Shown piece by piece: positions 9,494 to 10,935 of a stretch of 64,000 bases of DNA. The stretch is from Labrys monachus. GTDB lineage: Bacteria; Pseudomonadota; Alphaproteobacteria; Rhizobiales; Labraceae. The notes beneath the pieces are model-generated. The model worked only from the letters and a program-made list of their open reading frames with translations, made no database searches and was not told where the DNA came from. Each line of letters opens with the position of its first letter. The first letter of the stretch is position 1. The translations under genes and the position numbers were made by a program. The stretch lies in assembly GCF_030814655.1 (NCBI RefSeq), contig NZ_JAUSVK010000001.1, positions 6,827,001 through 6,891,000 on the forward strand, given 5' to 3'.

Positions 9494-9561
9494 GGACGTT
9501 TGGGAACGGTGCCGTCATCCCCGGCGAGCCGCGCAGCGGCGAGGGAAGCAACCATAATCGT

Positions 9562-10614
9562 TCATGGTGTTTTTTCTTGCCAGGGCGAGCGTCTGGCGAG
9601 AACGGTATTTGCGTAGATGAGAAGCTTTCTGGCGCATGCGACCATGGCCTGCTTTTTGGTTTTGCCAGCAGTGATGAGGCGCTTGTAGACGGCTTTGAGT
9701 TGCGGGTTCCAAAAATGGGCAGCGGGGACGGCAGCGCCGTAGAGAGCTTTGCGGACTCTGGCCCTGCCGCCGGCAATGCGTCGTTGGCCGTGGCTGTCGC
9801 CGCTGTCGCAATCGAAGGGGGCGAGGCCGGCCAGGGCAGCGATCCGCTCGCGTGAGAGGGTTCCCAATTCGGGCATGGCGATCACAAGGGTGATTGCCGT
9901 GCGCGAGCCGATGCCGGGAATGGAGAACAGCAGTTCGTATTTCTCGGCGAGATCGGGATATTGCTTGAGGTGATCGCGCAGCCGCCGCTCCTCGACGCCG
10001 CTTTGCAGACGACAGCGGCGGATGTCGGCCTCGATCATGCGTCGGACACGCTTGTCCTTGCAGTGCTCGAGGCGTGTTTTATGGCGCGCCTCGTCCGCCT
10101 CGATCTGCTCCAGATGCACCAGCGTGTCCCACAAGGCGGTCAGGCGGGGATCCGGCTTGTGGGTTCGCCCGCCCAGAATCGCGGTGAAGGCTGCGATCAG
10201 AACCGCGTCGATGCGATCATTCTTGGCCCGCTGCAGCCGGGCCTTGGCGAAAGCCCGCATCTGGATAGGCTGATGCAGGATCACCTCGAAGCCCGCCTGG
10301 CGCAGAGCCTGGGCGATGCCCCGCTCATAGCCGCCGCTGGCCTCCATGCCGACGCGTGTCACGCCCTGGGCCTTGAAGCGCTCCACCACGGCTTGCCAGC
10401 CGGCCGCATCGTTTTCATCCGCCCACACGCCACTCTGATTGTGAATGGCGCTGTCCAGCTTGGCCTTGCCGACATCGATGCCGGCTGAGCGGCCGGCGTC
10501 TTTGACGGGGGCGGCCGCCGCCGGCTCGGAGCGTTCGATGCCTCCTTTTTTGACGGAGCCAGCTTTTACCGTGCTGGCCTGACTGATTTTGGACTTTGTG
10601 CTAAGTTTGCCCAT
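9562..10614 (-). CDS. IS110-family transposase (RuvC-like DEDD plus Tnp_20)
   Basis: A 350-residue recombinase. The N-terminal RuvC-like domain has the DEDD set: Asp47 in GIDVGKAKLD, Glu91 in MEASGGYER, and Asp133/Asp136 in KNDRIDA. A helical middle follows, then the C-terminal Tnp_20 domain (FSIPGIGSRTAITLVIAM, IAALAGLAPFDCDSG, RRIAGGRARVRKALY), whose serine in DSG is the expected second nucleophile. ATG 10614 is preferred because GGGGAGACGAAG lies directly upstream; the frame stays open to 10662. All catalytic residues are present and there is no frameshift, so the element may be active. It would work with a bridge RNA from the adjacent non-coding segment. Confidence 0.93.
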   Translation of the reverse strand: MGKLSTKSKISQASTVKAGSVKKGGIERSEPAAAAPVKDAGRSAGIDVGKAKLDSAIHNQSGVWADENDAAGWQAVVERFKAQGVTRVGMEASGGYERGIAQALRQAGFEVILHQPIQMRAFAKARLQRAKNDRIDAVLIAAFTAILGGRTHKPDPRLTALWDTLVHLEQIEADEARHKTRLEHCKDKRVRRMIEADIRRCRLQSGVEERRLRDHLKQYPDLAEKYELLFSIPGIGSRTAITLVIAMPELGTLSRERIAALAGLAPFDCDSGDSHGQRRIAGGRARVRKALYGAAVPAAHFWNPQLKAVYKRLITAGKTKKQAMVACARKLLIYANTVLARRSPWQEKTP

Positions 10615-10818
10615 CTTCGTCTCCCCAACCTTGCTACGCGAACCCGAGGTTCGATCAACCACACGGGGTGAAGGAAGAGGCGATCACGATCCAGCTTCCC
10701 CACAGCCCCAGGGCTTCGGGAATCACGATCCGATGATCGCCGCCGGGCCTGGGGTGGCCACCCCAGGCCCGGCGCCTCTACAAGGCGAGACAATTTTGGC
10801 AGATTTTGATTATACAAG
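10615..10818 (-). ncRNA. Candidate bridge-RNA region of the IS110 element
   Basis: IS110-group elements encode a structured guide (bridge) RNA in the non-coding end upstream of the transposase; this 204-base segment is that position. It holds a perfect 34-base palindrome (10741-10774, centred on GGTGGCCACC), a 6+3+6 hairpin CGAACC-CGA-GGTTCG (10639-10653), and the direct repeat ATCACGATCC (at 10683 and 10722). On the transposase strand GGGGAAGCTGGATC (10688-10701 inverted) resembles the insertion target GGGAAG-GG-GATCC, a possible guide, but I could not fold it. Ends of the RNA are unknown. Confidence 0.4.
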
Positions 10819-10935
10819 GGGATCCATGGCCAGGACATCGCCCGACGGCATGGACCCTCTTCCCTCGCTTCGCTCGCCGGGGATGACGGAGCTTCGGACG
10901 ACGGCCGTTTCGAAGGGAGCGCGAGAGCCTGCCTC

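What the first reader, a model, noticed from the sequence alone, without database searches (positions are those of the whole stretch)
9512..10889. IS110 element inserted cleanly in the core of a dispersed palindromic repeat, target fully reconstructable
The repeat text stops after GAGGGAAG at 9548 and resumes with AAGGGGATCC at 10816. Rejoined, it is an intact palindrome of about 110 bases whose arms recur elsewhere in the window. This gives exact element ends, a candidate core (AAG/CTT or the CT within it) and a natural target sequence. IS110 relatives are known to prefer REP-like repeats, so this one may be a repeat-specific recombinase with many identical targets in its genome.
Basis: partly seen in the sequence, partly recalled or inferred. 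Interest (0 to 1): 0.75.

Follow-up and report, generated by a model that had tools for sequence, protein, structure and literature searches.

The report
RNA-guided IS110 element in palindromic repeat
A 1,270-base jumping gene of the IS110 family sits precisely inside a scattered palindromic repeat because its own guide ("bridge") RNA reads a roughly 14-base site that the repeat carries; this is a new, clean example of a mechanism published in 2024, not a new mechanism.

Summary
A 1,270-bp IS110-group element (window 9549-10818, one core copy included; transposase on the - strand) splits a 108-bp imperfect palindrome with an AG (CT in transposase sense) core. Four full copies, differing by one base in total, lie in the 6.92-Mb genome. 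Two (window, L003) are at the same nucleotide of the repeat. The other two (L002, L004) are in or at the end of unrelated reading frames. A truncated, ~80% identical relic also abuts the repeat at that nucleotide.

Specificity is therefore not for the repeat as such. Between the left end and the transposase lies an IS621-type bridge RNA with identifiable target and donor guides. They pair with GGATCCC|CT|TCCCT (repeat), equally well with CGATCCC|CT|TCTCT (L002), and poorly with L004. Its stems covary with those of Sinorhizobium and Defluviicoccus relatives (15 of 40 pairs change on both sides), whose different guides fit their own targets.

"Many identical targets" is wrong. The repeat has about 40 degenerate copies, and GATYCCCTTCCC occurs unoccupied only once, in the other arm of the palindrome split by L003. 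Insertion of IS110 elements into REP-like palindromes (IS621, ISRm19) and its guidance by a bridge RNA are published. New member of a known kind; modest interest.

The parts
9512..9548 (+). left part of the split palindromic repeat (CCGTCATCCCCGGCGAGCCGCGCAGCGGCGAGGGAAG); its last bases AG are the target core
9547..9548 (-). core dinucleotide CT (AG on +) at the right end of the element; the shared stretch is AAG/CTT
   Evidence: comparison of four copies; CT core by homology with IS621 (PMC11208158)
9549..9556 (-). right-end donor half-site (left donor, TATGGTTG before CT)
   Evidence: pairs with the left donor guide
9549..10818 (-). the IS110-group insertion sequence, 1,270 bp with one core copy
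   Evidence: four copies identical except one base
9562..10614 (-). transposase/recombinase gene; probable ATG start at 10614 (350 aa), longest frame from GTG at 10662 (366 aa)
   Evidence: Pfam DEDD_Tnp_IS110 4.3e-19 and Transposase_20 7.4e-19; IS621 and ISCro4 structures
10623..10669 (-). donor-binding loop of the bridge RNA
10630..10637 (-). right donor guide GTAGCAAG, complementary with one bulge to the left end CTTGTAT
   Evidence: read from sequence
10656..10663 (-). left donor guide TGTGGTTG, matching the right end TATGGTTG
   Evidence: read from sequence
10679..10741 (-). target-binding loop of the bridge RNA
10695..10701 (-). right target guide GGGGAAG, pairs with CTTCCC(T)
10717..10725 (-). 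left target guide TGATTCCCG, pairs with GGATCCC|C
10742..10775 (-). 5' stem-loop of the bridge RNA
10808..10818 (-). left end: core CT plus right-donor half-site CTTGTATAATC, with a TATAAT (-10-like) hexamer at 10809-10814
   Evidence: promoter role not tested
10819..10889 (+). rest of the palindromic repeat; its other arm holds a related site GGACCCT|CT|TCCCT

Best explanation
This is an autonomous IS110-group insertion sequence that works like IS621. A DEDD recombinase and a bridge RNA, encoded between the left end and the transposase start, bring the element's joined ends (donor TATGGTTG|CT|TGTATAAT) to a target matching the guide (about GGATCCC|CT|TCCCT) and recombine at the CT core without gain or loss of other bases. 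The dispersed palindromic repeat is hit because its consensus contains close matches to that 14-mer, one in each arm in opposite orientation. Sites outside the repeat are used when they match. Shown: ends, copies, targets, guide-target fit, RNA fold and covariation. Inferred: the circular intermediate, RNA expression and catalysis, all by homology with IS621.
For: Four full copies with the same ends. Pfam and PDB matches to IS110 recombinases, IS621 E = 5e-20; D63, E107, D149, D152 and S287 of the 366-aa frame are invariant in relatives. Guide fit: L001, L003 and L002 each score 10 of 12, reached by 1 of 6,246 CT sites in the window. Whole genome: GATYCCCTTCCC occurs once unoccupied and the element fills two more such sites; GATYCCCTTCTC occurs eight times unoccupied and once filled. 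RNA fold z = -4.3. Covariation with relatives: 15 of 40 pairs changed on both sides, 0 of 500 shuffles as high, no slid version above 4. S. meliloti relatives have another guide that fits their own targets 10 and 12 of 12, and guides swapped between species fit far less well in most combinations.
Against: The L004 target fits the guide poorly in register (6.5 of 12, reached by 10% of CT sites), unless one target base is bulged. Position 9 of the left guide is G where IS621 has the U that pairs with the core. No expression or activity data.
Confidence: 0.93

Rival explanations
1. The recombinase recognises the palindrome itself (protein or cruciform recognition of the repeat).
For: Two of four copies and the relic lie in the repeat, about 2e-6 for random insertion; the palindrome could extrude.
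Against: L002 and L004 are in non-repeat sequence, and L002 carries the same GATCCCCTTC core sequence. The insertion point is within an arm and not at the axis. The guide RNA fully explains the three well-matched sites.
Confidence: 0.04
2. The two repeat insertions are one event copied by segmental duplication or gene conversion, so the repeat association rests on a single insertion.
For: The elements are identical and the bases next to the junctions are the same on the left.
Against: Unique flanks outside the repeat differ, and the repeat spacer and right arm differ between L001 and L003; the relic L005 at another locus gives a third case of diverged sequence.
Confidence: 0.03

Closest known systems
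IS621 (E. coli, IS110 group; PMC11208160, PMC11208158)
   Same: DEDD recombinase, bridge RNA in the left end with target loop then donor loop, CT core, targets in a REP element, no target-site changes other than the core
   Different: Different guides and targets; recombinase only distantly similar (E = 5e-20 by phmmer); longer right guide (GGGGAAG); left guide position 9 not complementary to the core; N-terminal extension of about 35-50 aa
ISRm19 of Sinorhizobium meliloti (PMC1525189: 4 of 4 copies in REP); the relatives L069 and L070 are probably this element, not confirmed by name
   Same: About 49% amino-acid identity, same RNA layout with compensatory stem changes, inserted in a palindromic host repeat
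   Different: Guides GCCGGCACC and GGAGAAG fit the Sinorhizobium repeat instead
IS110 element of a Defluviicoccus vanus plasmid (NZ_CP053924.1, L068)
   Same: 57% amino-acid identity over the alignment, same RNA layout, guides fit its own target 8 of 12
   Different: Single copy whose target is not evidently a palindromic repeat
seekRNA-guided IS1111/IS110 elements (PMC11187229, abstract only)
   Same: A non-coding region of the element supplies an RNA that selects the target
   Different: IS1111 group has subterminal inverted repeats, and PMC11208160 places its RNA in the right end; here the RNA region is in the left end

Membership tests
IS110 family, IS110 group | DEDD (RuvC-like) plus Transposase_20 domains with catalytic serine | tested here: met
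   Pfam PF01548 and PF02371 above cut-off; IS621 and ISCro4 chains by phmmer; acidic residues and serine invariant in relatives
IS110 family, IS110 group | Long non-coding left end holding the RNA, short right end | tested here: met
   About 200 bp before the ATG against 13 bp after the stop
IS110 family, IS110 group | Bridge RNA with target and donor loops | tested here: met
   Fold z = -4.3, covariation, guide matches (and sequence)
IS110 family, IS110 group | CT core and insertion without further target duplication | tested here: met
   Junctions of four copies; reading frame restored across the rejoined L002 site; CTT is shared, so the CT position within it is by homology
IS110 family, IS110 group | Circular intermediate that makes a promoter at the joined ends | not testable with these tools
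   TATAAT at the left end; no convincing -35 seen by eye in the right end
REP-specific insertion sequence | All or nearly all copies inserted in the repeat | tested here: not met
   2 of 4 full copies, plus one relic

The most novel reading that the evidence does not exclude
This branch of IS110 elements repeatedly rewrites its target guides to follow whatever palindromic repeat is common in each new host (this genus, Sinorhizobium, and by eye several other alphaproteobacteria), while tolerating poorly matched or one-base-bulged targets such as L004, which would let it move between repeat families.
Probability: 0.3. Interest if true: 0.5.

Novelty: new member of a known kind. Interest (0 to 1): 0.3.

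Why it matters
It gives a compact natural test set for bridge-RNA targeting: one guide, three distinct natural targets, a diverged relic with the same guide region at the same repeat position, and relatives whose guides and targets changed together. It also shows that apparent repeat specificity can be a by-product of a short guide match. The recombinase is distant from the solved ones and has a long right guide, so it could be a candidate for comparison with IS621.

Tried and rejected
Protein searches of genome contigs and viral contigs with the single sequence found no relative; an alignment query found five. No relative passing 1e-60 in 398 genomes of the order, so the element is rare there. 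An empty orthologous locus in sister species was not found: the flanking transpeptidase gene is conserved but the neighbouring intergenic stretch is not. The idea that the host has lost exact target sites relative to a sister species was not supported: 0 exact sites in 1.2 Mb of each. A first pattern for the repeat was mis-typed and uninformative. Rfam has no matching family.

Full report
What is there. The sequence between GAGGGAAG (ends 9548) and AAGGGGATCC (starts 10816) is an insertion sequence with a transposase on the - strand. The protein carries the DEDD_Tnp_IS110 and Transposase_20 domains, and its only solved relatives are ISCro4 and IS621 transposases. The longest frame starts at GTG 10662, but relatives start at the position of the ATG at 10614, right after the RNA region, so 350 aa is more likely.

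Copies in the genome. The window lies at 6827001-6891000 of a single 6,920,400-bp contig. There are four full copies, differing at one base (9841 G to A in L004), and a 150-bp relic 80% identical to the left-end region. The window copy and L003 (4689194-4690460) sit at the same point of the palindromic repeat with different unique flanks. L002 (6791587) interrupts an open frame of 266 codons that closes perfectly when the flanks are rejoined. L004 (4083579) lies near the 3' end of a frame that also stays open across the join. [quoted passage not shown]

The repeat. Rejoined it is 108 bp. Complete copies elsewhere are 77-85% identical and run across the join. A profile found 7 places in 1.2 Mb of this genome, about 40 if extrapolated to the whole genome, and none in 1.2 Mb of a sister species, although that species has some copies elsewhere. 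Each arm contains a version of the target, in opposite orientation, and L003 still has an exact target in its other arm. Most copies deviate from it. Genome-wide, GATYCCCTTCCC is found unoccupied once, and the GATYCCCTTCTC form eight times.

The guide RNA. Using the layout of IS621 (PMC11208158), the region read on the - strand gives: 5' stem-loop; target loop with outer stem GGCGATCA/TGATCGCC, left guide TGATTCCCG, hairpin AGCC-CTGG-GGCT, linker GT and right guide GGGGAAG; donor loop with left guide TGTGGTTG, linker AT, hairpin GAACC/GGTTC and right guide GTAGCAAG. The 12-nt hairpin and GT linker of the target loop have the same sizes as in IS621. The RNA folds better than all 200 shuffles (z = -4.3). 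In its free fold, the two target guides pair with each other in part. On an alignment with three relatives, 95% of pair cells form standard pairs, 15 of 40 pairs change on both sides, and shifted controls fall to 4 or fewer. The relatives were chosen by protein similarity, but the structure was drawn on the window sequence, so the control percentages favour it somewhat; only four sequences, two nearly identical, are involved.

Guide against target. Scoring 7 left and 5 right positions (wobble 0.5), the repeat target and L002 each reach 10 of 12; one in 6,246 CT sites in the window does so. The S. meliloti elements reach 10 and 12 with their own guides, and D. vanus 8. Cross-species combinations score 8.5 or less: the S. 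meliloti guide on L002 is the best (8.5 by the printed counts), because both right guides read CTTCNC. L004 reaches only 6.5, which is not better than chance on its own. A one-base bulge would give ATTCC(T)C and restore the match; tolerance for insertions in off-targets was noted for IS621 (PMC11208160), but this remains a guess. Flanks of L004 could also have been changed by later recombination, although the frame across the join argues for a simple insertion.

Donor guides. The left donor guide repeats the right end of the element (TATGGTTG). The right donor guide is complementary to the left end, with one unpaired base. S. meliloti changes both sides together: left end CTTGCAT, guide ATGCAAG. 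These were read from the sequences, not scored statistically.

More distant relatives. Multi-copy elements from three other alphaproteobacterial genomes (38-42% identity; G773, G119, G463) appear, by eye, to sit in other palindromic repeats starting with CGTCATCC, CCTCATCC and TGTCATCC. A Mesorhizobium plurifarium element is flanked on one side by a palindromic CTTCTCCCC repeat, its other end being masked, and a Kiloniellaceae element has guides resembling its own target. I did not score these.

Verdict. REP targeting by IS110 elements was reported in 2006 (PMC1525189) and the RNA-guided mechanism in 2024 (PMC11208160, PMC11208158, PMC11187229), so this is a new member of a known kind.

Noticed in passing
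genome 2273464-2274369 (L022) and 6242168-6243073 (L023): A second, unrelated IS110-type transposase (35% identity) in two copies in the same genome; its targets were not examined.
   Followed up: no
L005, genome 388534-388683: Relic that keeps the left end and target loop but has lost the donor loop and transposase; its target guides are unchanged although the rest is about 20% diverged.
   Followed up: partly
L004 flank, and more than 100 places in G000-G003: A different abundant dispersed repeat (about 75 bp, GAAAAGCCGACCGACTTTTCGATCAAGAAAATGCGTCAAAATA) shared across the genus.
   Followed up: no
window 10600-10662 (- strand): The transposase has an N-terminal lysine- and serine-rich extension of roughly 35-50 residues absent from its S. 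meliloti and D. vanus relatives.
   Followed up: no
L002 flank, right of the element: The gene interrupted by L002 contains CCCTTGTATAA, an 11-base match to the target-left-end junction, probably chance within coding sequence.
   Followed up: no
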